IMG/VR virus record: IMGVR_UViG_3300034683_000142
Span: 1 to 64,000 of that record
Source: a virus
Direction: 5' to 3' (one strand)
Length of the DNA stretch: 64,000 nt
Positions within the stretch are counted from its first letter, which is position 1, and the number at the start of each line of letters is the position of its first letter. Shown here one piece after another: positions 490 through 25,066 of the stretch. The position numbers and the translations under genes were made by a program. The notes beneath the pieces are model-generated. The model searched no databases, was not told the DNA's origin, and saw only the letters and a program-made list of their open reading frames with translations.

Positions 490-2415
490 ATGGCTTATAA
501 GACAAAATTTCTTAATTATGCTACACAAACTAGATTTGACACAGACTTAGCCAATGGATTAATTGATAGTAAATCTATAGTATTTATTCAAGATACTAAA
601 AGAATCTGAACTCATAATACTTTCTTTGACACTTTATGAAATTATATAGGAGGCAAACCAGCAACTTTTGCTCCATCACCACACACGTTGGATAGTCATT
701 CTAATGTTACCATTACTTCAAATACTGCTGGAGAAATACTTAAATGAGATGGTAGTAAATGGATTAATAATACATTAGCTGAAGCTGGCATTGCAGCTAC
801 TAGTCATACTCATCCTTATTTACCATTAAGTGGTGGTACATTAACAGGTAATGTAATTATCAATACAGACTCAAAATTACATTGGGAAAGAAATACAGAT
901 TATGTATCTATCTCATTTAAAAATACATCAGATTCTGATACTGATTCTTATATGTCATTTTATGCTGGGGACAATGGAAATGAGTATTTTAAATTTAGTA
1001 GCTACAGTGGAGCAACTCCTACAACTTTATTAGATCTTAAAAGAGGTACTTCTACTTTATATACAGATTTAAATGTTACTGGTAGTGTTACAGCTCCAAC
1101 ATTTATAGGTAATTTATCTGGAAATGCTTCTACTGCTACCAAACTCCAAACAGTACGAACATTATGGGGACAGCCTTTTGATGGTACAGGTAATGTATTT
1201 GGAGATTTAGCTAATGTTAGTAATATAACGGCAAGTGGAAATATAAAACTTAATTATTCGTCATTAATACCAAAAGCTATTGAGTTTAATGCAGACTATA
1301 ATGGAACTAATTGGGGAGCAAGAATAGTCGCAGATTATTATGGCACTAGGTATCATCCGAGTGTTTATCATGGAATGTCATTTATTAGCGGCAGAAATTA
1401 TTTTGATAATTTTAGGTGGTTTAAAGCTGATTTTTCTGAAATAATGACATTGTTCAAAACAGGGAATTTAGTTTTAGGAAAAGGTACTAATCCTACTGAT
1501 GATGGGTATAAGCTTGATGTATTCGGCCCAAGCAGATTCACAGGTAATGTAGTTTTATCAGATACTCTTAATGTAACTCTCTCAAAAGAAGTTGGTGGTC
1601 AGTTAGCTAATTTCGGGGTAAATTATGCCCAAGCCGGAGGTAGAAATGCAAGTGTTGATGGCGGTTTTTTTAGGATAGACACGCGCCCTGAGCAAAATCT
1701 ATTTGATGTTATTTATCAAAAAGGCGGAGTTCCAGGAGAAATTATTTTAATGGGGGTAAGTAAAGGTGGCAACTTATATGTTTCTGGTACAGGCAGGTTT
1801 ACAGGTGAAGTAACAGCACCAACTTTTATAGGAGCTTTAAGTGGTAATGCTTCATCGGCAACAAAGTTACAAACTGCAAGAACAATAGCAGGAGTTTCAT
1901 TTGACGGTACAGCTAACATAGCTATTCCATTTGCTAATCTTTCAAGCAAACCGACCACTTTAGCAGGCTATGGCATTACGGATGCGGCAAGTTTAAATCA
2001 TACTCACGCTTATCTTCCATTATCTGGAGGAAGTTTAACTTCTACGATGAAAAATGTAACTACTGGAGTATTTGGTAGTCCACACTTGGCATTAAAAGCA
2101 TCTAATACCTTAGACAATAATGGATTTGTTGGTATGACTTTTGCAACTTCAACCAGTCCTAACTATGGATATTCTTTAGGAGCTTTAAGAAGTACAAATG
2201 GTGGTGGAGATTTAGTTATTAGAAGGCATAATAATGATATTATAGGTACTGAAGTTGCAAGATTAAGTTCTATAGGAGAATTACAACTTAGTGGACATAC
2301 TGTATATCACACAGGTAATTTTAATCCATCTAACAAAGTTGATGTATCAACTTATAATTTAGATATGGGTAATATTGCTGCTTTATTAGATGATATTAAT
2401 GGAACTATTATATAA
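490..2415 (+). CDS. Tail fibre protein with duplicated shaft module
   Basis: The 641-residue protein probably forms a tail fibre for host recognition. The N-terminus (MAYKTKFLNYATQTRF) resembles fibre attachment domains. Two copies of an HTH-x-YLPLSGG-x-L motif lie near residues 115 and 505, and the C-terminal part has VYHTGNFNPS, a phrase common in phage tail fibres. A 33-residue module beginning VTAPTFIG occurs twice (nt 1087-1185 and 1810-1908). TGA codons encode Trp three times in the first 90 residues, while the rest uses only TGG. The stretch between the two modules is visibly richer in G+C than its flanks, suggesting a swapped-in cassette. The start is the first ATG after the previous stop. 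Confidence 0.8.
1087..1185 (+). repeat. Copy 1 of a 33-codon repeated fibre module
   Basis: This encodes 33 residues beginning VTAPTFIGNLSGNAS and ending FDG. Copy 2 at 1810-1908 has the same length and differs at a few residues. Many synonymous codon differences separate the copies, so they are old or separately acquired. Confidence 0.8.
1810..1908 (+). repeat. Copy 2 of a 33-codon repeated fibre module
   Basis: This encodes 33 residues beginning VTAPTFIGALSGNAS and ending FDG, matching copy 1 at 1087-1185. Together the copies bracket a segment of different base composition inside the fibre gene. Confidence 0.8.
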
Positions 2416-5923: not shown

Positions 5924-8900
5924 ATGGGAGAATTTATAGAATTGATTGGGCAATTAAAGCCTAAAAATAATGGTAATTTTCCTATCGCTGATACTACTGA
6001 TTTAATTGGAGGGTATATTCAATTAGACTATGTAGCACAGTTAAATGAATACCTAAATACTGGAAAAGTAAGACAAGGTATGTTAGCTTATGTTACAGAG
6101 ACTAATAGAATATACCAATATCAGCAAGGAATATGAATCCCATGATCTGGTGGATCTGGTGGAGATGGAGGATTATCCATTATTAAAGTAGATAATCTCT
6201 CAGATTTAAATAATACAGCATTAAAAGTAACTGGACAATTAGTATATGTAGAAGAAGTAAAAGATTTAAGACTATATAATGGTGTAGAATGAGTATCTTT
6301 TAGTAAAATATATATACAACCTACACCTCCAGAAGACAAGGGAGGTATTTGAATAGATACTTCTGATGAAAAAACATATACAAGCTCTAATGGAATAATT
6401 TTAAATTTATTGCAAATACTATCTATTTTAGAAGAAAGAGTTAGAAGAATAGATTGAGCATTAGGTAATCAATTAGACTTTGGAGATTTTTCAAATAATC
6501 ATTATCAAGAATATGAAGATTATGAAAATCCTATAGAACCTTCTTATGGTACAGATACAGAAGAGGATTTTTGAAGACTTTCTGATAATTTACTAAGTGT
6601 AGTAGAAGAATTAGAACCTACACAATATAAATCTATAACTCCAACAGGTAAGCATTTAAGTATAAAAGGAGGAACTTATGCTGATATGATAAAGTATAAG
6701 GATAACTTTTTACCAAATGAACTACTATGGTGTGAGGATAGAAAACAACTATGAATAAAAGATAAAAGGACAAATAATTTAGTAATAATTGGTTCTGTTG
6801 GTGGAACAACCCCAGAACCTGATGACGATACTATGGAGCAAATACTAACGCAAGTTGTAGGTACTGGAACCAATACAGAAACAAAAATTATTGGAATAGA
6901 ATTTGGAGATATGGCCAATCTAGAAAACACTTATAGATTAAGTGTAAAGAATGGTAAACTAGATTTATATGATTATAGACTAGATAAAAACACTCTTGCT
7001 GGTAATGCCCAAGTAGTATCTAGTGGTGAATACTATACTAAACCATATTTTCCAATTCTTAGTGACTTTACAGGAAATACTAATTCTCCGATGATTTATA
7101 TAAATTCTTTATATGCTGGTGGGGATAGTACTTCTAAAGATTATAACCCTTGTTCACATAACTTTATTGAGTTATGTAATTTAACAAATATTGATTTAAA
7201 TTTAAAAGGGTTATACTTACACTATACAGAAAAGAATTCAGGACAGTGGGTATCATTGCCACTAAAAGGAGTAATAAAATCTAAAAGTACTTTTTTAATT
7301 AGAGGTGCTCAATGTTCTGTTATAGATATTAACACTACTTATATAAAAGTAAATACATTTGATATAGAGTGAACAAAAGATTTAACCTATAATCCAGATG
7401 TATTAGCAACTACAAATCCAGAATATAATATCTGGGATGAAAACAATTTAATAAGATTTTCTAACAGCTGTTCATTTTATATAAGTGGAGAGCCTTCTGA
7501 AAACTATTTTGCTACTAACATACTATCTGACACAGCTCCATGAAGTACAGTAGGAGTAAAAAAATGGTATGTAGATTTAGTAGGTATAGGTTCTTATAAT
7601 GGAACAGCAATGCCTAATGAAGGAGCACCTATTCCTGCTGTAGGTAAGAATAATTTATATGTTAGATACCATACTATGGATTTTATATCTCAAGCTATAA
7701 AAGCTACAACAGCAAGAAAAAATTCTTCTGAATGAACTTATATAGACATGAGTGTAGATAATCCAAAATTAAATAAATCTGTATATATACCTAAGGCATC
7801 ATATGAATCAAAAGATGTATTTTATAACAAAACAAAATTAACTGATGGAGCACCAAATATAATAACTTGTTCTTTTGGACAAAATGCTCATACTACAAGA
7901 TGTTTTAATTGAATATCTAAAGGATATTATAATGAATATATATGGTTTGCAGATTCAGAAGGTAATTATATAGAAGAAAATAAATTTGAGTCATTTAAAG
8001 CAGGTGATAATAGACCATCTACTAAGAATTGAAATGATCCAATATATGATAGAATAAGAATTATTGCTACAGATGGTACTGCATTTACAGTACATAAATT
8101 TATAAAAGATTGAGCAGAAGTTTCTGAACCTACAGTTATTAAATACAAAGTAGGTAGAGATAATGCTTGGTCTGAAGAAAGATCATTTACATTAAGAAAT
8201 CGTAATGATGTTATTAACTCAGGATTTAATTTTCTACATGTAACAGATCAACAAGGATTTAATCCAGAAGAATTAGAAACTTGGAGAGTATGTGCAGAAT
8301 TTATTGATAATGATAGAGTTAATAATGATTATGATTGAGTAATGAATACAGGAGATGAAACTCAAAATGGTAATAGAATTGGAGAATGGATAGATTATTT
8401 TAAAGGTGGAGAAGTTATATTTAAAGATAAAGAACAAATGTATGTTGTAGGTAATAATGACCTTTCACCAGAAGATTTTACTATATTAGGAGATGGTGGT
8501 GATTTAAGTAAAATAAATCCTTATAATGTATTATTATTCTTTACATTTGAACATCCTTATGAAATACCTAGAAGCTCTACAGGAGTATATATTCCAAGTG
8601 TATATAGTTTTATATATGGAGATACTTATTTCTTAGCTATGAACTCTGAAATATCTTCATTAACTAATGATTTAGTATTTGAAGTACCTTCTAGTGAAAA
8701 TGTATATACAGATGATATTAAACCTTGAGTAGAGAGGGATATGCAGCATTTTGTAGATGATAGTATAAAATGAAGAGTAGCATTTAATCATGAATCTCCG
8801 TTTACTATTATAACAGCAGAAACTATAATGTCTTATGTACATGCTGGAGAGGGAGGAGCACTAGTAAAAGATTTAACTTCTGAAAGAGGTGGATCTAGAG

Positions 8901-9550
8901 CTAATACTGTAGGAAATTATTGATTTTCTGAATTTTTACAAAATAATGAATTTAATATGTGTTTATGTGGTCACAAACATACTTATGCTAATTCTAAATA
9001 CTTAAGAGATGATAGCACTCTTACTATGGAACCTATAGTTTATGATCCTACATATAACCCAGAAACTGGTACATATCCAGATTGGTATAATGCTTTGCCA
9101 GAAAGAGAAAAAATGTGTGTAAGATTAAGTAATGATACAACACAACATTATGTAAGATATGTAATGTGTCAAGCTACTGGTTATAAATTAACTTCAAATA
9201 AAGAGTTACCTGCTAAAAATATACCTTGATTATTAGAATATTATCCTGTTACTGCACAAGTTGAAAATCCAACAACAAATACTGCTAGTGTAACACCTAA
9301 TGCTGCACAAAAATTTCCTCATTATATAATATGGAATATAGGAAAAGGTACAGAAACAGAAACTACAACAATAGTACCAGAACGTGATAGAATAATGGGA
9401 AAACCTTATAAAATAGTTTTATCTGCTAGTCCTACTACTCTTTGAGCATATCATTATAATAATCCAATACATTATACACAATTAACTAAAGTTCCAGCAA
9501 ATGGATCAGTTAATCCTACTAGAAATATAATTATTGAAAAATTACAATAA
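5924..9550 (+). CDS. Large virion protein with lamin-tail and calcineurin-like phosphoesterase domains
   Basis: One 1208-residue frame crosses about 19 TGA codons. The N-terminal 70 residues look like an attachment segment, followed by a Gly/Ser linker near residue 75. Residues about 395-460 match a lamin-tail-like beta sandwich: FIEL at 414-417 followed by the pattern L-x-G-x-x-L and W-V-S-LPL. Residues about 765-1060 match a calcineurin-like metallophosphoesterase: HVTDQQG with D775, NTGDE with D811, GNND at 843-846, FNH with H956, and CGHKH with H1017/H1019. Two metal-ligand positions differ from consensus (DxQ instead of DxH, GNND instead of GNHD), so activity is uncertain. Its place between lysis genes and a giant adhesin suggests a surface or tail enzyme acting on host phosphate esters, nucleic acid or glycans. 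Confidence 0.85.
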
Positions 9551-12500
9551 TGAAAATAAAGCATTATGATTTTGATTTACAGAAATGAGTTATTGATGGA
9601 GCATCTAATTCAAGCGATTTAGAACTTTCTAATCCAGCCTACTTAGATGACGAAGGTAACTCAATTTCTGTAGATCAGGGATTTACAAAAGTAGCAAATA
9701 AACTAAAAGAAATAGAAGATAACTTAGCCTGGATCTATATAAACGGTGCACATGGAGGTACTGGAGGCGGTGGTGGCACTGGTGAGGGTAATATAACTAT
9801 ACAAGTATTTGAAGGCACTACTATATACACATCAACTAGCACGGCTAATTTTAGTATTCTAATCAACAATGGCACCGTGTCTAGGGCATTTACAATAGTA
9901 ATTAAAGATGTAAGTACAGGAAGAGTATTAACTACTTTAAAAAAGTATTCTCTTACAAGAATTCCTATACAACTCACAGATCTAACTGGGAATGTTGATT
10001 TAGAAATATCAGCGTATGACTCTGCTTATAACTATGCAATTCCAACATATGTATCTATAGTATATGGAGCAATAAGCTTATCTTTACAAACTACTCCAGC
10101 AAAAACAATAATAAGAGGAGCAACTTCTGAAGTTCCTGCTAATTTTACAATTAGAAACAATATATTAGGTGCAACATCATCTTTTGTTTTTAAAGTAAAC
10201 AGTTTAGTAATAGATACTCAAACTAATATAAATGTATCTCCTAAATCTATATTATATAATATAAGAGATATACTATTTAATGGTGAATTATTTCCATCTG
10301 TATATGCTGGACAAAAGTTTTATTTTGAAGCTTATGCTTCAACTATACTAAATGGTGTAGAGATACAGTCTAATACTATAACATTTGATGTTACAGCAGT
10401 AGAGGCAGATAGTTTAATAATAGTAGTTAATGGTATTTCTGAAGAAGATTCTAGTTATAGTAGTATAACACAGTATAGTCAGGGATCTCAATTAAGCTTT
10501 ACTTATTATCTAAGCTATGCTCCAATAAAATATACTACTTTTAATGTAAATTATAGTATATATCTAATGTCTAATGGTGTTAAGTTATCAGATACACCAA
10601 TAGATTCTGGATTAATACCAAATGTTAATAAAGGAATAAATTCTGTATTCTCAATAAGCACTATAAATTTGCCTATAAATGCAGAGTCAGAATATTTGAT
10701 GATAGAATTATTTGCATCATCTACTTCAGATCCTGGAGATGTATCTGCACAATATACTAAAAGAGTATATGCCGTTATTTCCGAAGCTGTAAAATTAGAT
10801 ATGTATGCAAATAATGATATACATACTTTATTGGCTTATTATTCTAGAGTAACTGGTTTTCCAGCTGCAAGTGAAACTGAATGAAATTATGCTCTTAGTC
10901 ATACTGGCAGGTTTCCATATGATGATATATTTTTCAATCAATTTCCAGATGGAGTTAACTTATACCTACACAAAACTAATGGAACTTCTACAGGATTTAT
11001 AAACAATACTGATAGAATAAATAATATACCAGGAATAGTATTAAGTGGTGGTTCTTATGCTAATATAGCAGTAGCTAATCAGATGTTTCCTAATTATACT
11101 ATAGGAGAGTTTGGATTCTTTCAACCAAAAGGTTTTAACATATCTTTTACTTATAAAGCTGATTCTACCAATGGTGTAATAATGAGTATTGGTAGATATA
11201 AAAATGATTTACTAGATTCTGGTATAGAAGTTACATCAGAAGATGTAACTGTAAAAATAGGTACAGCTGATACATTAAATGTAAAATTACCTCAACAAGA
11301 ATTACTTACTATAGATATTGATGTATCCTTATTAGGAAATGTTGGTTGGTATTTCAAAATATATGTAAATGGAGTTTTATCAGCAGTTTCTAGAGTAGAT
11401 CAATCTGCAATTGACTGGACTTTTAATCAAGATTTGTATTTTGGGTGTAGAAATAATAATGGAGTATTAAGTAGGTTTTCTAATGTAACAATATACGATA
11501 TTAAACTTTATACATCTTCACAAACTGAATATGCTATTGTACAAAATTATATATCAGCTACAGAGCAGGCTTCTTTAAATCGTGGTGTTGTAGATGAATC
11601 TTTGGATGCAGAATTAAGATCAAAGAACTTATTTGATTCTGAAGGTAATTGTTTATTATGGGATAAAGCTAATAATTCATTCTATAGCGGAGACCAGTTA
11701 TATAATACATTAAGTGCACAAATGGATGTAAATACTCCATATCCTATTGTATTAATAAGAGAAACTAGTAGCTCCTATACAGAATTTAAAGCTTACTCTA
11801 CAGCTATTTTCTCAGCAGAACAGAAAGAAGAAATTATGAGTAAAACTTTTCCATGTGAAATAACTTTTAAGAATAAGTTAGGAGAAGTTTTAATAAGCAC
11901 TCCAAATGGTGTATCAGCAAATAATGGAGTAAGGATTGGATTGCAAGGTACTTCTTCATTATCTTATAATGCAAAGAACTTTGAGCTATATATGGGTAAT
12001 AAAGATGAGACTGGTAAATTACAACTATTTCAACCTATACAAGAGTGGCTTCCAGAAAATGAATTTACTCTGAAAGCTGATGTTATGGATTCAGCACATG
12101 TCAATAACGTAGTTATAGGTAAGATAATAAATGGCGAAGTTACTAATGAAGCTGGCATACCTATAAAACCATTAAGTGCTACCCCACCGATGTTACTACC
12201 AGATTCTGTTTTTGCATCAACTGAGAAGGCACAAGAAATTAAAAGCAAAATAAAGCATACTTCCGATGGTTTTCCTTGTCTAGTATTTATAAATTTTGCA
12301 CCAGACAGAATTACAGGAATGAGAGAGACCAGGTTTATGGGTATATATAACTTCAATTTAGGGAGATATGCCAATTATAATTTAGGTCTAAAAGTACTTA
12401 CTGATTACACACCTGTAACTCCTGGAGGAGCTCCAACTATTATAGAAGATTATTCTGATTTACAAACATATTGGAACACTACACCAGCTAATGGTACTTT

Positions 12501-15500
12501 CTCTATGGAAGTAAATCAAAATAATTCTGCACAAGGAGCATTTCAGCAAGATGATATGGAGATAATTAGGTTTATGGTAGATGCTATATATTCTAGTCAA
12601 GATACTAATATAGCATATGATGCATTAAAAACTTTATATACCCAGTTAGCTAATATGGCTTTGAGCCAGACTCCTAAATATACTATGGATGATGCTGGCC
12701 AAACTCCAACTAAATTAATTCCAGGAGAGTATTATAACTATAATGCTGCTTATTATAATTTTGCTGCTCTAGACCAACATTTAAATTGAAATAATGCTAC
12801 TTCTTATTTTATAATAACACTACTTTTTGGGATGGTGGATTCTATGTGTAAAAACTTAACTTTAAGAAGTTGAGGTGGTAATACATGATATACAGCATTC
12901 TATGATATGGATACAGCATTTGGTTTAAATAATGCTGGTCAAGATATAGTAGAGTATTGAGCACATTTACACAGATGGTATAATATACAAGCTGGTGACA
13001 CTGGAATAACTACATTTACTCTAGAAAAAAATTATACTAATGATAACCCAGATGGTGTGAAACAATACTTTTCTTGTAACTGAAATAGGATGTGGGAAGT
13101 ATTAGAAAACTTACCATTGAGAGACAGTGGTGGATTATCAGAAGAAAGAATGACTTTAGAAAGAGCTTATGCCAATTTAAGACTAAATCTATTTTCAGAT
13201 CCAGAAGCTTTCATAAATAAATATTATAAAAGTTATACTGACCAAACAGGTGCAATATTATTTAATTATGATTATAAAGTTAAATATTTAAAAATAGCAC
13301 AAAGTTATAACGAAATAGATGGTTTTGTTGACACTACAGATTTTTCTCAATTGAAGTTTTTACATGGTAACAGAGTTATACATGTTAAAGACTGATTTAA
13401 GAAAAGAGTTTTATTTTTAGATGGAGTTTATGGAGTTACAAATAACCAGTCTAATATAGATCCTTCTGTAAATAGTCCTGCAAATCAAATGTGGAGTAAT
13501 AATAAAGCTGCTGGTGTTGGAGAACAGATATTATTTGATATAACAATGTCATCTAATTCTAAAATCTTATATAGGTGAGCATATGACAAAACTTCTGGAA
13601 GTTTTTGGTTAGATAATAAAGATATTCCAGCAGTTGTACCTACTCCTGGTGGTGAGACTATTATCTATATGTATGCAAATAAATACATAACTAAATTTGA
13701 TAATTTTAAAGACTATCCATGAACTTTACTAGTTAATATTGATTTGCCTTTGTTAAAAGAGTTAGATTTAAGTAATTTAAGGAATATACCAGCTAATAAC
13801 TTTTTATTTCCTAAAGTATATGATCCAAATACTGATACTGGGCTTAAGAGTATAGAAAAACTAATATTATCTAATGTGACTTTAACTGACGCATCTTCTT
13901 ATACTTTAGATGTTAGAGATTGTAAAAATTTAAGTTACTTAGACATATCAAACTCAAATATAACTTCAGTTTTATTAAGTGATTCAGCATCTTTAAGATA
14001 CTATAATCTTTCTAATACAGCAATTAGAACTTTAAATATAAGTAATCAAGCATTTTTAGAGTCTCTTATATTATCAGGCTGCAATGACCTAGAGGAAATA
14101 GTTATAAATAACTGCAACTCTTTAACTAATCTAGTACTTCCTTTAAATGTTAAGAGGCTTACTATTACTAACTGTGAATTTTTAGACGAGTTAAGAGTAA
14201 CTTATACTTCTATTAATAATTCTATATCTAACCTGGAATTAATAAATGTAGATAACTGTCCTAATTTAAGATTATTTGATATAAGTGGGCAGAATAACCA
14301 AACTCTTAAAGTGAATCTAATAGGTGCATGAAATCTAGAAGACTTAAAATTAAGTGGAGTAAGAACTTTAGATATATTATTGCCATCATTGTTTATAGAT
14401 GGAGAGCCTTATTTCAATACTCTTAAATCACTAGATATTAGTAATACATCTATTTCTAACTTTATCTATAATGACAATCCAAAAGATGAGCTAGGTAACT
14501 TTATAAGAAATAGCTATTTAGATTTAAGCAATTTTCCAAATTTAGATTCTATAAAAGCTTATAATAATACTTCTATTAGAGAGATTAGATGTAAGAATGA
14601 TATAAACAATCCTATTAATTTAGAGACACAATCATTTATAAATTGCAGTTCATTAAACAGAATTAAAGGTAACTTTAATATAATAGGAATGGAAGTATTT
14701 AAGAACTGTAGTAGCTTAAAATTAAATGATGAGTCTGTTTATGCTAATACTCTTCCAGATCAGTTCTTAGAAGGAAACGATGTAACAAATATATCTATAA
14801 ATTCTAGTATATTAAGAAGTGTATTTGAAAATTGTAGCTCTTTAAGTTATAATGATTTTAAAAGGATAGCTGTTAAACTAAATAATAATGTTACATCTAC
14901 TGAATCATTGTTTAAAGGATGTTCTGGAATAACAGGAGAAATATGAAGAGATTTCTTTTCTAATTGTAGAAATATAGATAATATTAAAGATATGTTTTCT
15001 GGTTCTGGTATATCAGGAACTATAGTTTCCAGAGCTGATAATTATTCAGATAGTGATGAAAGTACTTGAGGATTGTTTGATTATCTTCCAAATTTAAGAA
15101 ATCTAGAAGGATCTTTTGAAAGTTCTTTTATAGAGTGAATAGATAATAACCTATTCAAATCAAAAAATGGAACATATTATCCTTTTGTTAATATAGATAA
15201 TATGTTTAGGTATTGTGGAAGACTAAAAACTTGTTCAGATACTAGACAAGTAACTAAAACATACGGTAGGTTAAATTCTAAAACATTCTTTACAGACTTA
15301 AGAAATTTAGTTTCTGTATATCCAAAAGATGTATTTAGAGGATGTTCTGGTGTAGATATGGATATTATAAATGATGGTAATATAACTTATTTATTCCATA
15401 TATTAACAAACTCTTCTTATAATGTATTAACCGATTCTTTATATGCTGGAATTAACTTATTTGGAGAAATTAAATCTAATGTGTTTGGTGGAATAAGTAA

Positions 15501-17346
15501 TACCTTTTCTGATGGAGATACTACTTATTATATACCTAAATTTACATCTATTCAGTATCCATTTTCGAGTTCTGGAAGTAATATATCCATAGATATTAGT
15601 CAGATGGGGCAAATATTCAGAAATATAAACACCACACTACTTCAAGCAATTGGTGTATTTTCTGGATTAAAAACAATTGGCTCTAGAAAAATACCTGATG
15701 ACATTTTTCAAGGATGTATAAATCTTAATAGTATAGAATCTTTATTTGCAAATAGTGATATAGATAATGATGGAGAAATATATGAATTTCCTAACCAAGT
15801 AATATTTAGAGATACAGTTTCTCTAAAAAGTATTAAAAACTTATTTAATAATACTAATAAAATAAGAATTAAGTTACTGGGGGAAGGATTTAAAAATTGT
15901 ATTCTAGAAGATGTTTCTGGTGCTTTTGCTTCTAGTGGAGTATTTGGAATTATTCCATATAGACTATTCTTTATGACTGATGGAACTTCTATAAGAAGAA
16001 CTATAAAACATATGGAAGGTATATTTAATAATTGTTGATTATTGGGATATACTGCTGATAGACAAATTAGTACAGATACATTATTAGAAACTATAACATA
16101 TCCAGATGGTAATACTGTATCTATTTATACAAATTGAGCTAATAATATAGTATCAGTTCCTGGAACTAAAGTAGATTATAAATTAGATGTAACTAATATG
16201 TCTAAATCTTATAATTTTGATAGAGATGAAAGACAGACTATTCCTAATCCAAATTATATAGCTGATCCAGCAAATAGACCTCCAGATTATGATCCAAGTA
16301 CTCCGGAAACTATTCCTAATCCAGAATATAATCCAGGAGAACAAGCATTCGATATTTGGTATTTAGATGGATATGGATGGGATGGAGCTACATCTACAGA
16401 ACAGTCTGAGTTGGATGCACAAAAAGCTAGATTACAGAGATACTTTATATATGATCAATATCAAGCACAGTCTATTCAAGATAATGCTATTACTGACTGA
16501 TATACAGAAAGCCATCAAAACTACATGATTCCAACAGATTTGTTTAGATATTGTCATAAAGAAGCTACACTGTCAGGAGTATTAAGTAGCTTATCTTGGT
16601 ATGAGCGTATAGTTGTTGTTGATCCAGCTACTGGTAAAGGTTCTATACGAACTACAAATAATATACAAGGATTAAGAGGTAGAATACCAGTAAGATTGTT
16701 TAAGTCTTTAGTAGATAATACAGAATTTAATTCTGTATTTAGTAATACTAAATTTGATGCATTCTATGGCTTAAGAGGTACAAATACTAATAATTTAACT
16801 AGAGGTATTGCATATCCACCTGATTTATTACAAAATAATGTAGAGCTAACAGATGTTCCTAATTTATTTAGTAATACAGTTATACCTATAGGAGTAGATA
16901 TTAATTCTGACTTATTTAAAAACAATATAAAGTTAAAGAATATAAGTTCAGTTTGGTCTAATTGTACATTTGATAAGAGGCCTTATAATGCAGAATCATT
17001 TTCTCCAGACCAAGTCTATTATCCACAGATTGATTTTGTAAATATATTCAAATATAATATTAAAATAACTAATGCTTCTAATTTATTTGCAGTAACAGAC
17101 ATAGTAAGAGATAATAAAGGATTGCTAATGATTACACCAGATTTATTAAGAACAGCATTAAATATAAATAATATTAGTGGTATGTTTTATTACAATATAA
17201 ATATGTATGGAGCAGTACCATTGTTCCAATCTACTATATATACAGCTTTAAATTCAGTGTATGGATACTTAACTGGAGTTAATAAATCTAACATAACTAA
17301 TGCTGATCAATTAGAACCTAGACTTATTCCTTCTGGATGAGATTAA
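9550..17346 (+). CDS. Giant adhesin-like virion protein: LamG-like, CotH-like and leucine-rich/BspA-like repeats
   Basis: A single frame of 2598 residues crosses about 18 TGA codons. Residues 69-81 form a Gly-rich linker, and about 85-445 are Ig-like beta repeats. Residues about 512-665 resemble a concanavalin/LamG fold (WYFKIYVNGVL, RFSNVTIYDIKLY). Residues about 690-1250 resemble the CotH kinase family: LQGTSSLSYNAKNF near 797, TLKADVMDSAHVNN near 840 and FYDMDTAFG near 1117. From about 1399 come leucine-rich repeats (LKELDLSNL, LSYLDISNS), then BspA/DUF285-like repeats with NCSSL and MF-x-G-C motifs up to the end. The ATG overlaps the previous TAA. A TGA two codons before the final TAA may be a former stop. 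Surface adhesion or modification of a host protein is inferred. Confidence 0.85.
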
Positions 17347-18336: not shown

Positions 18337-19305
18337 ATGGATGAGTTTGAAAATGTTATAGAGTCTGATGATTTTTTAGAAGACTCTACACAACCACAAG
18401 AAAATGTAGTAGAAGAAGATAATGGTATAGAAAGTATCTTTAATGACGATTATGAGGATAATCCTTCTTCACAGTCTATCATTGACAAATTTTTACAATC
18501 TAAAGGAATTGTAGATTCTAAAATTAAGGTCATAGATGAAGATAGTAAAGAAGTTGAAGTAAAATTCTCTGATTTGTCAGAAGAAGAACAACTGGATATA
18601 CTGAATTCTTTAACTACACAAGATAGTCCACAAGTAGATGATTCTGAATTAGCTTTTTTAAATGAACTAAAAAAGAATAATTTAACTATTCAACAGTTTT
18701 TAGATCTTTATAAAGAGTCAGTAATATCTGAAGCTGGACTTCAACCTGAGCCATCATATACAGTAGATCAATATGATGATAAGGAACTATTTTTACTAGA
18801 TCTCAAAAATAAATATGATTTAACAGATGAAGAACTCCAAATAGAACTTGAAAAGGAACTTCAAAATGAGGAACTTTTTAATAAGAAAGTTGCAAAATTA
18901 AGAAGCGAGTATAAAGAATTGGAGGAACAATACAATGCTAGTCAAAAGGCTGAATTTGAAAAACAACAGCAACAGCAGTATAATCAATTTGTGGATCAAA
19001 TGACTGATATTGCTGTAAAAACTACAGGATTTCATGGCTTGGAACTAGAAGATGAAGATAAAAATAATACACTTTCATATCTGCTTGATTTAGATGAAAA
19101 TGGAATGAGTCAATTCTATAAAGATCTAAATAACCCAGAGAAAATATACGAAGTAGCTTGGTATTTAAAATATGGTAAAGATGCCTTCAAAGCAGTTGAA
19201 GATGCATACGAAGCCGAGATAGCAAAGCTAAAATCGAAAGTAGATAAGCCACGTGTTGTTAGGCACCAGAACAACGAAAATGACGTATTTAATAATTTAT
19301 TTTAA
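18337..19305 (+). CDS. Putative capsid scaffolding protein
   Basis: The 322-residue protein is very acidic at the N-terminus and helical throughout, with a coiled-coil and Gln-rich run (about residues 190-222) and a basic C-terminal tail (SKVDKPRVVRHQNNEN). This is the usual make-up of phage scaffolds, whose basic tail contacts the capsid protein. It ends 9 nt before the major capsid gene. It has a clear Shine-Dalgarno AGGAGA at 18325-18330, six bases before the ATG, which is uncommon in Bacteroidales and may mark high expression. Its Trp is TGG. The assignment rests on composition and position, not on a recognised family. Confidence 0.7.
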   Translation: MDEFENVIESDDFLEDSTQPQENVVEEDNGIESIFNDDYEDNPSSQSIIDKFLQSKGIVDSKIKVIDEDSKEVEVKFSDLSEEEQLDILNSLTTQDSPQVDDSELAFLNELKKNNLTIQQFLDLYKESVISEAGLQPEPSYTVDQYDDKELFLLDLKNKYDLTDEELQIELEKELQNEELFNKKVAKLRSEYKELEEQYNASQKAEFEKQQQQQYNQFVDQMTDIAVKTTGFHGLELEDEDKNNTLSYLLDLDENGMSQFYKDLNNPEKIYEVAWYLKYGKDAFKAVEDAYEAEIAKLKSKVDKPRVVRHQNNENDVFNNLF

Positions 19306-19314
19306 TAAAAAACT

Positions 19315-20733
19315 ATGATAGTTGCAAGCTATGTAAATCTGAAGCCTGAATTGGCACACAGTAGAACGTATGAAGACTTCTATAAGTTACTGGGAACTAC
19401 TCCTCAAATGATGGGAGTAATGGCAAGGATGAACATGAATAACACCGCCACATTCCTTACAGAAGGCTTGATGAATGTCTATTACAATCAAAAAACAGTT
19501 AATAAATTTCAACCTATTAATTCATTGATGGTTGAATGGGAGATAGAAGTTGGTTTCTTAAAAAGAGTTGCTTTTGCTGCACCTCCTACAGGAGATGGTG
19601 CTGGCGGCTCAGATATAACAATGTACTTTACTGAAAGGTATTATGAACGATATGATACCTTTATAATTGAAAAATCAGGACAACAGTGTGTTGTTAAGAC
19701 TGTTCCCCAAAGAAAAGCAGATAATTTCTGGGAATATGTTGTACAGTTGATTGACTCGGATTACGAGGCAATTCTTGATGCAAACTCTTGTCAAGTAGGA
19801 GATACTACAAGATTCTTATCGAATGTAGTACCTGAATACCACTCTGAAGGCTACGTAAAGGCACAGAGTAATGTTGAAAAACATAGAACCTGGATTAAAG
19901 AGTCTCGTGTTGATATCAGCATGTCTTCTAGATATGATGCATTTGAAGAGCAGTTTATAAAAATCTCTAATGGTGAAACAGGCGGAGAACTTAAACAAAA
20001 ACTCTATAAACTGAATAAAGCAGAAAGAGATTTGTTAGATTCTTGGTATAATGCTAAAAATCAAGGTCTATTGTGGGATAAATCTACAATGGATGCAAAT
20101 GGTAAGTGTACAGTACATGACCATGAAGGTCGTCCACTGATACAAGGTGATGGACTTATTCCTCAATACCAAAGATTTGCTAGTAAAATGAAATACACTA
20201 GACTTGAAATCTCTGTTATTGATAAAATGATGGAACAAATGGTTGACAAATGTGAAAATCCTGTTGGAAATCACTTTATGTTTGCCGTTAATAAAGTTTT
20301 GTGGAACCAAATTAATACAGCTTTGAGAGATTGGCTGAAATTGTGGAACTCTACACCTACAATGATATACTCTAAAGCAGCAGGAATGCCTATAAAGATT
20401 GATAATCCTATAAAAGTAGGGGCTACTTTCATGTCTTATGAAGTTGCTGGTAATGTAGTTACCTTTGTAGTAGATAATGCACTTTCTAAATATTATCCTA
20501 CTAAGGGGTTTGGCTTGTGTATGGATCTTACTCCTGACATGTCAACTGGTAATCCAGCTGTTGGTGCCTTCACTCTTAAAGGTAAAGAATTTATCTCTAA
20601 CAAACTAACTGGAGTTGGTTTCCAAAATGGAGAAGTAGCTACTCCTGTAGCAGGTGGTAAATTAATAGTATCTGGTTATTATGGTATAGCAGCTTTTGCA
20701 CCATATAAATCATTTATACTTAGCCAAAATTAA
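19315..20733 (+). CDS. Major capsid protein, crAss-like
   Basis: The 472-residue protein is the crAss-type major capsid protein (HK97 fold expected from the family). I recognise the N-terminal LAHSRTYEDFYKLLGTTPQM region, the MTEGLMN-like segment, and the central stretch around YHSEGYVKAQSNVEKHRTWIKES that typifies these capsids. All eight Trp codons are TGG and no TGA is present, unlike most neighbours. Codon use is also less extreme in A+T, as expected for the most highly made protein. It follows the putative scaffold and is followed at once by a terminator-like hairpin that overlaps its stop codon. Confidence 0.9.
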   Translation: MIVASYVNLKPELAHSRTYEDFYKLLGTTPQMMGVMARMNMNNTATFLTEGLMNVYYNQKTVNKFQPINSLMVEWEIEVGFLKRVAFAAPPTGDGAGGSDITMYFTERYYERYDTFIIEKSGQQCVVKTVPQRKADNFWEYVVQLIDSDYEAILDANSCQVGDTTRFLSNVVPEYHSEGYVKAQSNVEKHRTWIKESRVDISMSSRYDAFEEQFIKISNGETGGELKQKLYKLNKAERDLLDSWYNAKNQGLLWDKSTMDANGKCTVHDHEGRPLIQGDGLIPQYQRFASKMKYTRLEISVIDKMMEQMVDKCENPVGNHFMFAVNKVLWNQINTALRDWLKLWNSTPTMIYSKAAGMPIKIDNPIKVGATFMSYEVAGNVVTFVVDNALSKYYPTKGFGLCMDLTPDMSTGNPAVGAFTLKGKEFISNKLTGVGFQNGEVATPVAGGKLIVSGYYGIAAFAPYKSFILSQN

Positions 20734-20766
20734 AAGAATTGGGGAGTTTAATCTCCTCATTCTTTT
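20732..20766 (+). terminator. Terminator-like hairpin after the capsid gene
   Basis: AAAAGAATTGGGGAG (20732-20746) pairs with CTCCTCATTCTTTT (20753-20766) with one bulge and a 6-nt loop. The run of T after the stem is short and part of the stem, so termination may be partial, lowering expression of genes beyond the capsid. Confidence 0.65.
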
Positions 20767-20819
20767 AGATACTAATAACCTATAGATAACAATAACTTAT
20801 ATATAATAAACAATGAGCA

Positions 20820-21716
20820 ATGATTAATGCTATAATATTACGTAGCGTATTCGGGAAGGTGGGCCAAAAATACTTTATCCAACCTTGTCCAAATCCTAGA
20901 ACTGGTAGGTTTGCAGAATGTGTAAAGAACATAGATGCAAATGGAGATATGATATTATCTGAAAGTGAAAAAGAAGACCAAAAGAACAAACTAATACATT
21001 ATATTCCAATTAATGAAATATTTGTAATAGAAGATGGTTTTAAATTGGATCTTACAGATGTGGTAGATAGATGTATTTGGGAAGCAATTCAATATTCCGA
21101 TATAATTGCAAAAGATAGAGACGAAAGAGACGAAAATGGTATTCTAGTAATAGATGGAGATCAACAGAAATATGGTACAGCAGAGCTGTATGTAGAAAGA
21201 CCTGGAGAAGTAACTAAAGCTAGGGTAACCAAAAAACAACTAATCTTCAAAGCAGAGCAGTATATCTATAATGATTCAGAATCCGATAGAATCAAAAAAT
21301 GTCAAGTACTTGGTAGGGATTTAAGAAATGCTTATCCAGCAGACGTTTTAGATTATATGATTAGTGTTGCAGAAAAAGATCCACAAAAAATCATAAATAT
21401 GTATGAAGATGATGGCTGGAAAATGCACTTATTTATATTGGATGCAATAGAAAAAGGTGTTATTAGAAGGTCAGATGGTATATATAGATATGATGATAAA
21501 ATGTTAGGTGGGTCTATAGAAGCAGTTATTACATTATTAAAAGATGTAAGGTATAAAGCTATTCTAGATTCTATAAAGAGAGAAACATATATAGATTACT
21601 TACCTAAATCTGAAATAGAAAATATAGAAAAACACCAAACAGATGGAATACCTCATTTTGATGAGAGTAGAGAAGAAGGTAAAGCAACTTCAACCGCTTC
21701 TAAGAAAAAGAGTTAA
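20820..21716 (+). CDS. crAss-like head-associated protein, 298 aa
   Basis: The 298-residue protein begins MINAIILRSVFGKVGQKYF; an N-terminal beta domain (about 1-110) is followed by a helical, charged domain (about 145-265) and a Lys/Ser-rich tail. Both Trp residues are TGG. It occupies the slot directly after the capsid gene, where crAss-like genomes carry conserved head proteins, so a head-completion or capsid-internal role is likely. The ATG at 20820 is used; a competing upstream ATG at 20813 gives only four codons. Confidence 0.7.
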   Translation: MINAIILRSVFGKVGQKYFIQPCPNPRTGRFAECVKNIDANGDMILSESEKEDQKNKLIHYIPINEIFVIEDGFKLDLTDVVDRCIWEAIQYSDIIAKDRDERDENGILVIDGDQQKYGTAELYVERPGEVTKARVTKKQLIFKAEQYIYNDSESDRIKKCQVLGRDLRNAYPADVLDYMISVAEKDPQKIINMYEDDGWKMHLFILDAIEKGVIRRSDGIYRYDDKMLGGSIEAVITLLKDVRYKAILDSIKRETYIDYLPKSEIENIEKHQTDGIPHFDESREEGKATSTASKKKS

Positions 21717-21732
21717 CTAAATTGTATAACCA

Positions 21733-21755
21733 TTAATTAGGTAATACCTAATTAA
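21733..21755 (+). repeat. Perfect 11-bp inverted repeat between head genes
   Basis: TTAATTAGGTA and TACCTAATTAA flank a single A. As RNA it can form a 9-bp hairpin with a 5-nt loop but has no following T run. As DNA it could be an operator for a dimeric repressor. It lies just upstream of a gene with no ATG. Confidence 0.6.
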
Positions 21756-21810
21756 ATAAAAACTTAAGGATATCACATCAAAACAAGCGTTTGAGTATGC
21801 TTTAGTAGAA

Positions 21811-22653
21811 TTGAACAAAGTCCAGGCTCCTAGCTTACTCTTAGAAGATTATAATTACTTTATTAACAAAGCTATTAATCAGTATGTAAATAAAGTATAT
21901 AACTTGTACGACATCAACCAACAAAAATCAGATGATGTAAGAGTACTTAAATCAACAGCAATACTAGTTCCTACTGTGCAAACAGTATATAGTACACTAA
22001 ATGAAGAATCTAGATTACTGTACAAAACATATGAAGTAGTTCTTCCAGATGATTATTTACACATTTTAAACTGTGTAGTTGAATATGATGTTTTAAAAGA
22101 TTATAAATGCTACAATAAGGGTAGTAAATGAGCCACAGGAGCTAAACGGCTGACAGCCGATATGTTTTCTCAGATAATAAATAATTACTACATGCGTCCA
22201 TCTTATAAGAATCCGTATTTTTATATTAATAATATAACTACGGATACAACTTATCAGACAGCAGATAACCAAACTCCTATTACTTATTCTGAAAATTTAA
22301 ATGCTGGAGTTCCAGAAAATGTAGAAAAAGTTTCTGGAGTTAGGTACGGTAATAAGAATCAAGTAAGATTGGAAATAAGATATGGCAAAGATGATGCAAT
22401 TTTTAAACTTGCATTGGTGTATGTAGATTATTTAAAAGCTCCGCAATTCGTTAGGCTTACTCAAGAACAAGTCGATCAAGTGGAGGATACCTCCCAAGTT
22501 CTTGAATTTCCAGATTATGTTTGTCAGGAAATTGTGAATGAACTAGTTATGTTATTATTAGAGAATGCCAGTGATCCCAGATTACAAACTAACATCCCTA
22601 TTAGTAAATCTATAGCTAATCCTGTACAGGAACAACAACAGAATAATAGATAA
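21811..22653 (+). CDS. crAss-like head/connector protein without an ATG start
   Basis: From TTG 21811 the protein is 280 residues. The frame stays open up to a TAA at 21757-21759, and the extra upstream codons read LKDITSKQAFEYALVE, which looks like genuine protein and matches my memory of the N-terminus of related crAss proteins. No ATG or GTG exists in this stretch, so initiation is at TTG or at a non-standard codon near AAGGA (21766-21770). One TGA (22129-22131) is read as Trp. The protein is alpha/beta with a long helical N-terminus (YFINKAINQYVNKVYNLYD) and a Gln-rich end. A connector or ring role is inferred from position. Confidence 0.65.
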
Positions 22654-22685
22654 ATTTTTATTTTTTGAAAATAAATAAATAAATT

Positions 22686-23606
22686 ATGTTTCAATACACA
22701 AAAACAACGATTATAAATGGGCAATACGCAGTAGATGCTCAAGGTAATCCCCTATTAGATAGTGCTGGTCTTCCAGTAAAAAAAGTACAAAAAGCTTCTG
22801 ATGATTCATCTATTACTGTAATAGGGTCGGGAACTTTTCTTAAAGATAATATAAAAAGTATTTATAAACGACCTTACGAAGCAGGTGTAAAAGAAGAAGC
22901 TACACTAACAGTTAGTTTGAGTGGTGTAACTGCTGGAGATATTTTAAGGCTTACAGTTAAAGTTAAATTGGATGGGACTACTCAGTCTGACTATGCTAAC
23001 TTTACTTATGACTTTAGACAACCAATTACAGTAGATATTGCCTCTTCTGGCACAGCTACTACTGATGCTGCTGAATTTGTTAAAGTTTTCAACAAACTTA
23101 AAGCAGAATATGGTAGGTCATTATTTACAACTTCTGCAACTGCTGAAACTATAACTTTTAAAGCTAAAACTAATGATCAAAGGTTTGAGTCTATAGTATT
23201 AGAAAAAGTTGGTGCAGTTCCTTTGAATACTTTAACTCCAGAAATTAAACAACTTGCAGTAGGTAGCGTATCAGTTCCTGGAAAGAATGGATTTGGAGAT
23301 GATGCATGGATGTTAAAATCTGTAGTTATTCCTACTCTTGAAAATACCAGAGTATTTGGAATACTTAAAGATGAAAAACCTGTTCTAGGTGGTAACTATT
23401 CTCAATATACTCTCAAATATGAAGTAATGTCTGATGAGTATGACATATGGAATGGTAACAAAGTGTCAGTTACAAACCATGTATTCTGGGTAGCAGCTGA
23501 TCAGGTAACTAATTTTGAAAATACAGTTCTTGCTGTACACTCCCCTATTAAATCAATAGGAGAAGGTGGTGTAGTAACAGATGTAGAATTGGTTGTAGGG
23601 CCCTAA
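22686..23606 (+). CDS. Putative auxiliary capsid or tail protein, 306 aa
   Basis: The 306-residue protein is beta-rich with a Thr/Ala/Gly-rich middle (about residues 75-175), the pattern of capsid decoration or tail-tube proteins. All three Trp codons are TGG. It lies inside the head-protein block and is followed by the strongest terminator in the window, suggesting that it ends a highly expressed transcript with the capsid genes. I recognise no named family; a virion structural role is inferred. Confidence 0.7.
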   Translation: MFQYTKTTIINGQYAVDAQGNPLLDSAGLPVKKVQKASDDSSITVIGSGTFLKDNIKSIYKRPYEAGVKEEATLTVSLSGVTAGDILRLTVKVKLDGTTQSDYANFTYDFRQPITVDIASSGTATTDAAEFVKVFNKLKAEYGRSLFTTSATAETITFKAKTNDQRFESIVLEKVGAVPLNTLTPEIKQLAVGSVSVPGKNGFGDDAWMLKSVVIPTLENTRVFGILKDEKPVLGGNYSQYTLKYEVMSDEYDIWNGNKVSVTNHVFWVAADQVTNFENTVLAVHSPIKSIGEGGVVTDVELVVGP

Positions 23607-23632
23607 ATTATAGTTATAAATTAAAAACCTTT

Positions 23633-23664
23633 AAAAGGCGGCGGAACAAACTGCCGCCTTTTTT
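23633..23664 (+). terminator. Strong Rho-independent terminator
   Basis: AAAAGGCGGC (23633-23642) pairs perfectly with GCCGCCTTTT (23653-23662), with a 10-nt loop and a T tract. The GC-rich stem stands out sharply from the AT-rich surroundings. It ends the head-gene transcript and separates it from the connector and tail genes. Confidence 0.9.
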
Positions 23665-23675
23665 ATTTAAAATAT

Positions 23676-24344
23676 ATGATAACAAAACTAGCATCTGCTA
23701 TATATAATGATGTAATAGCTGGATTATCTGGATATACTTCTACTCCAACTATATCTCTTCCACAATTGGAAGATGAGATTGTGGAAGAAAGGTTACAGGT
23801 AATTAAAGAGTATATGTATAGAAATATGATACCCAGAGAAGATTTATACATGGCGATTAATTGTATAGAAGTAGATTGTAAGTCTCTGGATAGATGTCCT
23901 TGTAATAGAGCTACTTATTCAAAACCGATAGCACATTTTGAAATACCACAAATAATTAACGGAATTCCAGATGGTGCTATAGAATATATTGGATCAGTGG
24001 ACAGAATGGTACAATTTAAAGTATATACTTCTACAGCTTTCTTATATCATAAGTATTTAAGGAGAAATTCTAATAAACCATATGTTTATATAGAACCCAC
24101 CCCAAACGAAAATAATAAGTATGATGGGTGGATATTCAATGCTCCATTAATAGAAGTTATTTCAGTTGTGGGAATTTTTAAAGATCCAAGACAAGTAGCT
24201 GAGTATGATTGTTGTAAAGATGATGAAATAGAGAACTATACATTTATATCTACTGAAGTTAAGAAAAGATTAACTGAGAAGAAAATCAGATATTATAGGG
24301 CTCTTCTTCAACCACCACAACCAAATAATCAAGAACCACATTAA
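23676..24344 (+). CDS. crAss-like connector (ring) protein candidate, 222 aa
   Basis: The 222-residue protein has a helical N-terminus, a Cys-containing segment (CIEVDCKSLDRCPC, about residues 65-78) and an alpha/beta core with YVYIEPTPNENNKYDGWIF. The four closely spaced Cys could bind a metal. Its single Trp is TGG. It opens the run of connector and tail genes after the strong terminator. The type of protein and its place fit one of the head-to-tail ring proteins of crAss-like phages, but I cannot name which. Confidence 0.65.
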   Translation: MITKLASAIYNDVIAGLSGYTSTPTISLPQLEDEIVEERLQVIKEYMYRNMIPREDLYMAINCIEVDCKSLDRCPCNRATYSKPIAHFEIPQIINGIPDGAIEYIGSVDRMVQFKVYTSTAFLYHKYLRRNSNKPYVYIEPTPNENNKYDGWIFNAPLIEVISVVGIFKDPRQVAEYDCCKDDEIENYTFISTEVKKRLTEKKIRYYRALLQPPQPNNQEPH

Positions 24345-24355
24345 TATAATAAATA

Positions 24356-25066
24356 ATGCACGAATTTAAATATCCATTTAATACTGCATATGTTCAAGCA
24401 AGAGAACTATATGGGGTAGAACTAAATCCAGATGAATTTGAAAATATAGGTATAGTTGCTTGAGATAGAATTGGAAATAAACAGACAGCTCTATATAAAA
24501 TTGTTTTAGAACCTGAAAAGGTAAATGAAGGAGTCTGGGCTGTAGATTTGCCATGTAATGCTGATATTATAGAAGCTGTTACTGCTGAGTTTGAAGATTG
24601 GGAAAAAACTTCTAACAAGGCTTTAACATATCAAAATAGTAATGGTTGGATAGAGCAATATATCGAAAGAGGTAAAGTAAATACTAATGCTCTATATCAA
24701 TCTGGAAGATTTATTAAGTATAGGAGAGAACAAAATACTTTATACTTTGATGTTCCTTATAAAAAAGTATATATCCTATATAAAGGATTTATAGCTGATG
24801 AAGAAGGATTACCATACTTAACAGGAAAAGAAGTAGATGCAATAGCTGCATTCTGTGCATATATAAATGATCTAAAAGGAGCTAGAATAAGTAGAGATGC
24901 AAACTCTATGCAGTTAGCTAGTTATATGGAGCAAGAATGGAAAAGATTGTGTACTAGAGCAAGAGTTCCAGACTATCTGAACCAGAATGAAATGGATGAA
25001 ATACTAAATGTATCTACTTCATGAGATAGAAAGAGATTTGGGAAAAGTTTTAAGCCTATACGCTAA
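24356..25066 (+). CDS. crAss-like connector/tail protein, 236 aa
   Basis: Reading two TGA codons as Trp (24461-24463 and 25022-25024) gives 236 residues. The core (about residues 60-220) is alpha/beta with GVWAVDLPCNADIIEAVTAEF and a helical end with YMEQEWKRLCTRARVPDYL. The second TGA sits where a standard-code stop would leave 222 residues; reading through adds DRKRFGKSFKPIR, a basic tail. The next gene starts at 25008, inside this one, so the tail overlaps it by 59 nt. Either a basic extension or a relic stop is possible. Structural role inferred from context. Confidence 0.7.

What the first reader, a model, noticed from the sequence alone, without database searches (positions are those of the whole stretch)
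9550..17346. A 2598-residue surface protein joining LamG-like, CotH-like and leucine-rich repeats
CotH-family proteins are kinase-fold enzymes known from spore coats and some bacterial effectors. Here a CotH-like region sits between a lectin-like fold and long BspA-like repeats common in Bacteroidetes surface proteins. The phage may have borrowed host adhesion repeats and may phosphorylate a surface target.
Basis: partly seen in the sequence, partly recalled or inferred. Interest (0 to 1): 0.7.

Follow-up and report, generated by a model that had tools for sequence, protein, structure and literature searches.

The report
Phage tail-type kinase–phosphatase gene pair
A gut phage of the crAss-like order carries a giant protein, probably a tail fibre, that joins a lectin-like fold, an intact-looking CotH-type kinase and leucine-rich repeats; its gene always travels with a neighbouring phosphatase gene in unrelated phages, which suggests that these phages use a matched phosphate-adding and phosphate-removing pair during infection.

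Summary
Window 9550-17346 is one 2598-aa ORF if TGA is read as Trp (18 TGA; the relatives support Trp). It is a crassvirus late gene. LamG-like, CotH and LRR/BspA-like regions occur in that order. CotH membership is supported by profile-profile comparison (98%, E 8e-13), by Pfam in relatives (Bacillus phage G gp353, 60 bits) and by catalytic residues invariant in 62-63 of 63 homologues: D1097, N1102, D1119 (= CotH D228, N233, D251), plus K809/K842.

The gene directly upstream (5924-9550) encodes a purple-acid-phosphatase-fold metallophosphoesterase with a lamin-tail domain; its motifs are also invariant (53/53). Separate searches with each protein hit exactly the same 33 of 50,697 phage records (crAss-like, Bacteroides DAC/SJC, Lak, Bacillus phage G). 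In IMG/VR 49 of 52 pairs lie within -32 to +103 nt. Bacterial genomes almost lack the family. Against a 99%-identical relative, the phosphatase domain and a tail-fibre gene are the swapped alleles.

The CotH-LRR protein is already annotated in crAss002 and similar phages. I found no published description of the obligate pairing. Substrates, virion location and activity are untested; 'phosphorylates a host surface target' is speculation.

The parts
9550..17346 (+). 2598-aa CotH/LRR protein (TGA read as Trp)
   Evidence: Open frame under code 4 with 18 TGA codons; full-length homologues in many phages
9550..9789 (+). Conserved N-terminal segment ending in a W-[IL]-Y-x-x-G-G-rich motif; proposed docking part (inference)
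   Evidence: Seen in the paired CotH proteins with intact N-termini; absent from the five CotH proteins without a phosphatase partner (L041, L057, L060, L063, L067)
11131..11511 (+). LamG / concanavalin A-like beta-sandwich, residues about 528-654
   Evidence: AlphaFold2 model strands; Laminin_G_3 in relatives; LamG-type Foldseek matches
11845..13452 (+). CotH kinase-fold domain, residues 766-1301
   Evidence: Profile extent, hhalign to bacterial CotH, Pfam CotH in relatives
12838..12912 (+). Catalytic segment D1097-x4-N1102 ... W1113 ... D1119-M-D1121
   Evidence: D1097 63/63, N1102 63/63, D1119 and D1121 62/62 with one gap; position 1113 aromatic in 53/62
13720..14649 (+). Leucine-rich repeat region, residues 1391-1700
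   Evidence: Pfam LRR matches 1426-1684; LRR_EndoS above cut-off in gp353
14635..17067 (+). BspA-type LRR-like repeats, residues 1696-2506
   Evidence: 11 motif copies against 0.45 expected; LRR_5 match in gp353
5924..9550 (+). Partner: 1208-aa metallophosphoesterase (purple-acid-phosphatase fold) with a lamin tail domain
   Evidence: Metallophos 24.2 bits over cut-off 21.5; Metallophos and LTD in 11 of 11 homologues; Foldseek to purple acid phosphatases, E 1e-15
7085..7312 (+). Lamin tail domain of the partner, residues 388-463
   Evidence: lamin Ig-fold structures among Foldseek matches, prob 0.97-0.99
8228..8986 (+). Phosphoesterase catalytic domain, residues 769-1021 (DQQ, GD, GNND, H, GHKH)
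   Evidence: Motif residues invariant in 53/53
7501..9500 (+). Allelic-replacement block: phosphatase residues about 527-1190
   Evidence: 67-86% nucleotide identity to IMGVR 3300033999_000053 against 95-100% on both sides; dN/dS about 0.24

Best explanation
The gene encodes a giant tail-fibre-type protein of a crassvirus that is one half of a conserved two-enzyme module. Shown: LamG, CotH and LRR regions in order; intact CotH active-site residues; an upstream partner gene for a purple-acid-phosphatase-fold metallophosphoesterase with intact metal-binding residues; co-inheritance and usually immediate adjacency in unrelated phages. Inferred: both proteins are tail appendages. The CotH domain works in the infected cell, where ATP is present, and phosphorylates Ser/Thr of fibre or other late proteins, much as Bacillus CotH phosphorylates the outer coat it is built into. 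The LamG and LRR parts bind the host surface. The phosphatase removes phosphate, either from the kinase's own products at assembly or adsorption, or from phosphate groups of the host envelope, which would fit its swapped allele.
For: CotH family: profile-profile 98.1%, E 7.6e-13; gp353 at 60.3 bits. Active site: K809, K842, D1097, N1102 in 63/63; D1119, D1121 in 62/62. The D1097-N1102 spacing of 5 matches PKA D166-N171, and the W1113-D1119 spacing of 6 matches CotH W245-D251 (residues from PMC7821199 and PMC12189002). Phosphatase: fold, motifs 53/53. Pair: same 33 of 50,697 phage records from two separate tblastn searches; 49 of 52 IMG/VR pairs within -32 to +103 nt, and the outlier L034 also has a phosphatase about 7 kb upstream. 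Phage-specific: 3 MAG contigs in 84,980 species. Tail context: tail-fibre gene 490-2415 upstream, GH19 lysozyme-like gene and crassvirus capsid gene nearby; homologues noted by their annotators as receptor-binding or internalin-like. The LRR half is the fastest-changing part in most close pairs; the phosphatase domain and tail fibre are the replaced alleles in the closest relative.
Against: No virion proteomics located: the crAss002 paper does not mention these proteins. crAss001, whose structure is solved, lacks both proteins in the matches found. No CotB/CotG-like serine-rich substrate is encoded in the phage. No kinase activity, substrate or ATP source has been shown. Some phage CotH proteins have no such phosphatase.
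Confidence: 0.45

Rival explanations
1. Receptor-modifying module: the phosphatase acts at the cell surface and strips or cleaves phosphates of capsule or lipopolysaccharide during adsorption, while the CotH protein is mainly a receptor-binding fibre whose kinase acts only in the cell.
For: The phosphatase domain and a tail fibre are exactly the alleles that differ between two otherwise nearly identical phages; purple acid phosphatases are typically secreted enzymes (own knowledge); the lysis and tail-fibre gene neighbourhood.
Against: dN/dS in the swapped block is about 0.24, purifying; other close pairs vary more in the LRR than in the phosphatase; does not explain why a kinase is always paired with it.
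Confidence: 0.25
2. The CotH domain is used only as a folded adhesion or scaffold part and no longer transfers phosphate, as claimed for some fungal CotH invasins (own knowledge).
For: No activity shown; an extracellular location would leave it without ATP; the window protein alone is below the Pfam CotH cut-off.
Against: Lys, Asp, Asn and the second Asp pair are invariant in 62-63 of 63 homologues while mean column identity over the region is 24%.
Confidence: 0.15
3. Host-takeover enzymes: the pair changes phosphorylation of host proteins in the infected cell and is not part of the virion.
For: ATP is available there; phages such as T7 encode host-directed kinases (own knowledge; also stated in PMC8008677).
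Against: Lectin and LRR parts, N-terminal Gly-rich segment, size, late-gene position and tail-gene neighbourhood point to a structural role.
Confidence: 0.1
4. The adjacency is ordinary tail-module synteny without an enzymatic link between the two proteins.
For: Tail genes often stay together; some CotH phage proteins exist without it.
Against: The pair is kept across crAss-like, Lak, Bacteroides DAC/SJC phages and Bacillus phage G; the two record sets are identical, 33 of 33.
Confidence: 0.15

Closest known systems
Bacteroides phage crAss002 gp20 ('transferase/internalin-J') and gp19 ('phosphatase'); internalin-like proteins of crAss phages cr52_1, cr107_1, cr109_1
   Same: Same length, same domain order, same adjacent phosphatase
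   Different: 25-28% identity over the CotH-LRR protein; standard code or TAG recoding instead of TGA=Trp
Bacillus phage G gp353 and gp352
   Same: LamG, CotH, LRR and BspA LRR all recognised by Pfam in one protein; metallophosphoesterase directly upstream
   Different: Shorter (2055 aa), infects a Bacillota host, unrelated phage lineage
Bacillus CotH spore-coat kinase
   Same: D228, N233, D251 equivalents and the aromatic position of Trp245
   Different: Large inserts in the domain, fused to lectin and LRR parts, phage-borne, paired with a phosphatase; no phosphatase is known to be expressed late in the Bacillus mother cell (PMC7821199)
CotH domains fused to hypervariable C-type lectin in phages (Benler 2021, PMC8008677)
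   Same: CotH domain on a phage binding protein
   Different: LRR instead of hypervariable C-type lectin; paired with a phosphatase
Plant purple acid phosphatases (partner gene)
   Same: Fold and all metal-ligand positions except the tyrosine
   Different: The Tyr ligand position is Gln in 52 of 53; N-terminal lamin tail domain

Membership tests
CotH kinase family (PF08757) | Sequence-profile similarity to CotH | tested here: met
   Window protein alone 19.7-21.1 bits, under the 23.8 cut-off; homologue gp353 60.3 bits; profile-profile 98.1%, E 7.6e-13
CotH kinase family (PF08757) | Catalytic Asp and Asn (CotH D228/N233) and metal-binding Asp (D251) | tested here: met
   D1097 and N1102 63/63, D1119 62/62; literature residues
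CotH kinase family (PF08757) | Aromatic adenine sandwich (Tyr142/Trp245) | tested here: inconclusive
   Trp245 position is aromatic in 53/62; the Tyr142 equivalent was not placed
CotH kinase family (PF08757) | Fold match to a solved CotH structure | tested here: inconclusive
   The 50 PDB matches shown are lectin-like folds only; viral library matches include 'Spore coat protein H kinase fold' proteins
CotH kinase family (PF08757) | Protein Ser phosphorylation | not testable with these tools
   Needs an assay
Purple acid phosphatase (partner gene) | Metallophosphoesterase fold and motifs | tested here: met
Purple acid phosphatase (partner gene) | Tyrosine metal ligand that gives the purple colour | tested here: not met
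   Gln814 at that position in 52 of 53
BspA-type LRR (PF13306) | Repeated F-x-N-C-x-x-L units | tested here: met
   11 copies against 0.45 expected; Pfam LRR_5 itself only in gp353, below cut-off
Crassvirales | Crassvirus major capsid protein and tail ring proteins | tested here: met
   PF23898 46.5 bits over cut-off 27; PF24228 22.5 bits, below cut-off
Virion tail fibre | Presence in the virion | not testable with these tools
   Only gene neighbourhood and domain content

The most novel reading that the evidence does not exclude
A phage tail carries a matched protein kinase and phosphatase. The kinase charges fibre or receptor-binding proteins with phosphate inside the dying cell, and the partner phosphatase discharges them on contact with the next host, as a switch or timer for adsorption. 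The pair is shared by crAss-like, Lak, Bacteroides and Bacillus giant phages.
Probability: 0.15. Interest if true: 0.9.

Novelty: new variant of a known kind. Interest (0 to 1): 0.6.

Why it matters
crAss-like phages are among the commonest viruses of the human gut, and how their large tail appendages work is mostly unknown. A catalytically intact kinase that in this family almost never occurs without its neighbouring phosphatase, across unrelated phages, predicts that virions, or proteins being built into virions, are phosphorylated and dephosphorylated on purpose. That would be a new layer of control in phage assembly or adsorption. It can be tested at once with cultured phages: crAss002 on Bacteroides xylanisolvens, the DAC and SJC phages on B. 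thetaiotaomicron, and Bacillus phage G.

Tried and rejected
phmmer and hmmsearch of the CotH region against PDB sequences gave no CotH structure. Foldseek of the LamG+CotH model against PDB listed clostridial neurotoxin binding domains and related lectin folds: TM-score about 0.16 and rmsd 16-19 A, a generic concanavalin-like resemblance and not evidence of a toxin.

The idea that the crAss002 phosphatase begins with a widespread tail-fibre head-binding motif was recalled from memory and not borne out: only 4 records match. The N-terminal 340 aa of the window phosphatase match only other members of the family. No similarity of either protein to crAss001 gp21-gp26 or gp31. No CotB/CotG-like serine-rich substrate in the 98.9-kb record. 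Literature searches for the pair (crAss-like with phosphatase and internalin; metallophosphoesterase with CotH and phage) returned no paper; the library holds open-licence papers only.

Recent capture of host adhesin repeats is rejected because of the wide phage distribution and near absence from bacterial genomes. Chance adjacency is rejected.
Full report
WHAT IS THERE. The window is the first 64 kb of a 98,884-bp virus record. It encodes a crassvirus major capsid protein at 19315-20733 (PF23898, 46.5 bits) and a weak tail ring 1 match at 24356-25066. The late genes read TGA as Trp: 18 TGA in the gene of interest and 19 in the gene before it, and none of the genes checked ends in TGA. Under code 4 the frame 9550-17346 is a single 2598-aa ORF whose ATG overlaps the stop codon of the upstream gene. 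At its TGA positions the relatives most often have Trp, and a relative with the standard code, L002, has the gene uninterrupted. The ORF is real.

DOMAINS. AlphaFold2 on 44 aligned homologues gave a confident model of residues 455-1316 (pLDDT 84, pTM 0.86): a lectin-like beta-sandwich (about 528-654), then a mixed alpha/beta region that holds the CotH motifs. In the viral structure library its best matches are the cr52_1 internalin-like protein (TM 0.79), Bacillus phage G gp353 (0.60) and proteins named 'Spore coat protein H kinase fold'. PDB Foldseek returned only lectin folds among the rows shown, so no direct fold match to a solved CotH was seen. By sequence the window protein alone is just below the Pfam CotH cut-off, but 10 of 44 relatives match. 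Gp353 matches CotH at 60.3 bits together with Laminin_G_3, LRR_EndoS and LRR_5 in the same order. A profile of the phage domains (58 rows kept) against 12 bacterial CotH domains aligns over 312 columns with probability 98.1% and E 7.6e-13. The C-terminal half has Pfam LRR matches and 11 BspA-type units against 0.45 expected.

ACTIVE SITE. In Bacillus CotH, Asp228 and Asp251 are needed for activity (PMC7821199), and residues equivalent to PKA D166, N171 and D184 are kept, with Tyr142 and Trp245 stacking on the adenine (PMC12189002). Here D1097, N1102, W1113 and D1119 have the matching order and spacing. D1097 and N1102 are invariant in 63 of 63 homologues, D1119 and D1121 in 62 of 62, K809 and K842 in 63 of 63, and position 1113 is aromatic in 53 of 62. 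Mean column identity over the aligned region is 24%. Such conservation is what selection for catalysis would leave; it does not show which group is transferred.

THE PARTNER. The upstream gene, 5924-9550, encodes 1208 aa with Metallophos (over cut-off) and lamin tail domain matches; both occur in 11 of 11 homologues. The model (pLDDT 88.5) matches purple acid phosphatases at E 1e-15. The motifs D775, G810-D811, G843-N-N-D846, H956 and H1017-x-H1019 are invariant in 53 of 53, G1016 in 52. The tyrosine ligand that defines purple enzymes is Gln in 52 of 53, so it is PAP-like and not a purple acid phosphatase in the strict sense.

THE PAIR. tblastn of each protein on its own against 50,697 phage records returned the same 33 records: crAss-like phages, Bacteroides DAC and SJC phages, Prevotella Lak phages, Bacillus phage G and a Bohxovirus. 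In the members examined the phosphatase is the next gene upstream. Two IMG/VR scans with the two domain alignments gave 60 distinct contigs (61 rows, one contig entered twice). Fifty-two carry both genes by profile on the same strand; in 49 the gap is -32 to +103 nt and in three a 1.6-kb insertion lies between. One more contig (L050/L097) has the phosphatase and was itself fetched by its CotH match. L034 has the phosphatase about 7 kb upstream, and L032 is cut at the contig end. Five contigs have CotH without the phosphatase (L041, L057, L060, L063, L067). These are divergent (105-144 bits) and lack the N-terminal W-[IL]-Y-x-x-G-G-rich segment found in the paired proteins. Other phage CotH proteins without the partner exist, for example in Bacteroides phage p00 and Klebsiella prophages. 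In 84,980 bacterial and archaeal species only three MAG contigs matched. The alignments used for the IMG/VR scans came from paired loci, so that count is not fully independent; the 33-of-33 result is from single sequences.

VARIATION. Contig IMGVR 3300033999_000053 is 95-100% identical to the window from about 4.5 to 23.5 kb, except 7501-9500, where identity falls to 67-86%: phosphatase residues about 527-1190. The tail-fibre gene 490-2415 is the other strongly diverged place. The swapped block is under purifying selection (dN/dS about 0.24) and keeps the catalytic motifs. In most other close pairs the LRR half of the CotH protein varies most while the CotH domain is stable. This fits recognition parts changing around conserved enzymes, with the phosphatase allele also exchanged in this lineage.

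MECHANISM. Shown: domain order, intact active-site residues of both enzymes, co-inheritance, adjacency. Inferred: tail location (gene neighbourhood, lectin and LRR content, size), kinase action in the infected cell because ATP is there, substrates among late proteins by analogy with CotH in spore coats, and phosphate removal by the partner either from those products or from the host envelope. No CotB/CotG-like substrate gene was found. crAss001, whose tail is solved (PMC10172136), was not matched by either protein, so its structure does not decide.

NOVELTY. CotH kinases in phages are already noted as unstudied (PMC8008677), and members of this protein family carry the notes 'internalin-like, receptor-binding' or 'CotH kinase'. 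The obligate pairing with a PAP-like phosphatase across lineages was not found in any paper I could search.

Noticed in passing
whole record; window 1-64000, L005, L006: TGA=Trp is concentrated in late plus-strand genes; 35 early minus-strand genes use 59 TGG and 12 TGA, and the capsid gene block 18337-24344 is almost free of TGA. No gene checked ends in TGA.
   Followed up: partly
whole record; window, L005, L006: ARAGORN finds no tRNA gene in the 98.9-kb record, so the source of the TGA-reading tRNA is unexplained.
   Followed up: no
loci L002-L115: Homologues of this one gene pair use three codes: standard, TAG recoded and TGA recoded (32, 17 and 11 contig rows), and close relatives differ.
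   Followed up: no
window 490-2415: Tail-fibre gene diverged from an otherwise nearly identical relative.
   Followed up: no
L013 (Bohxovirus PV686213), L009 (cr7_1): The CotH frame of L013 holds three TAA and one TAG, so no single-stop reassignment opens it; the cr7_1 phosphatase is split into two annotated ORFs.
   Followed up: no
L020, L021, L022: A 1.6-kb insertion separates the phosphatase and CotH genes in three related contigs.
   Followed up: no
contig of L038, L051, L091: Two CotH-LRR genes in one contig, the second directly after the phosphatase gene.
   Followed up: no
L041 2638-5922: A protein with a PARP catalytic domain lies near an unpaired phage CotH gene.
   Followed up: no
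L128: A CotH domain in an Erysipelotrichaceae MAG carries the phage-like motifs QGTSSMKYPKKN and KANWIDISHSRN, a possible bridge between phage and bacterial CotH.
   Followed up: no
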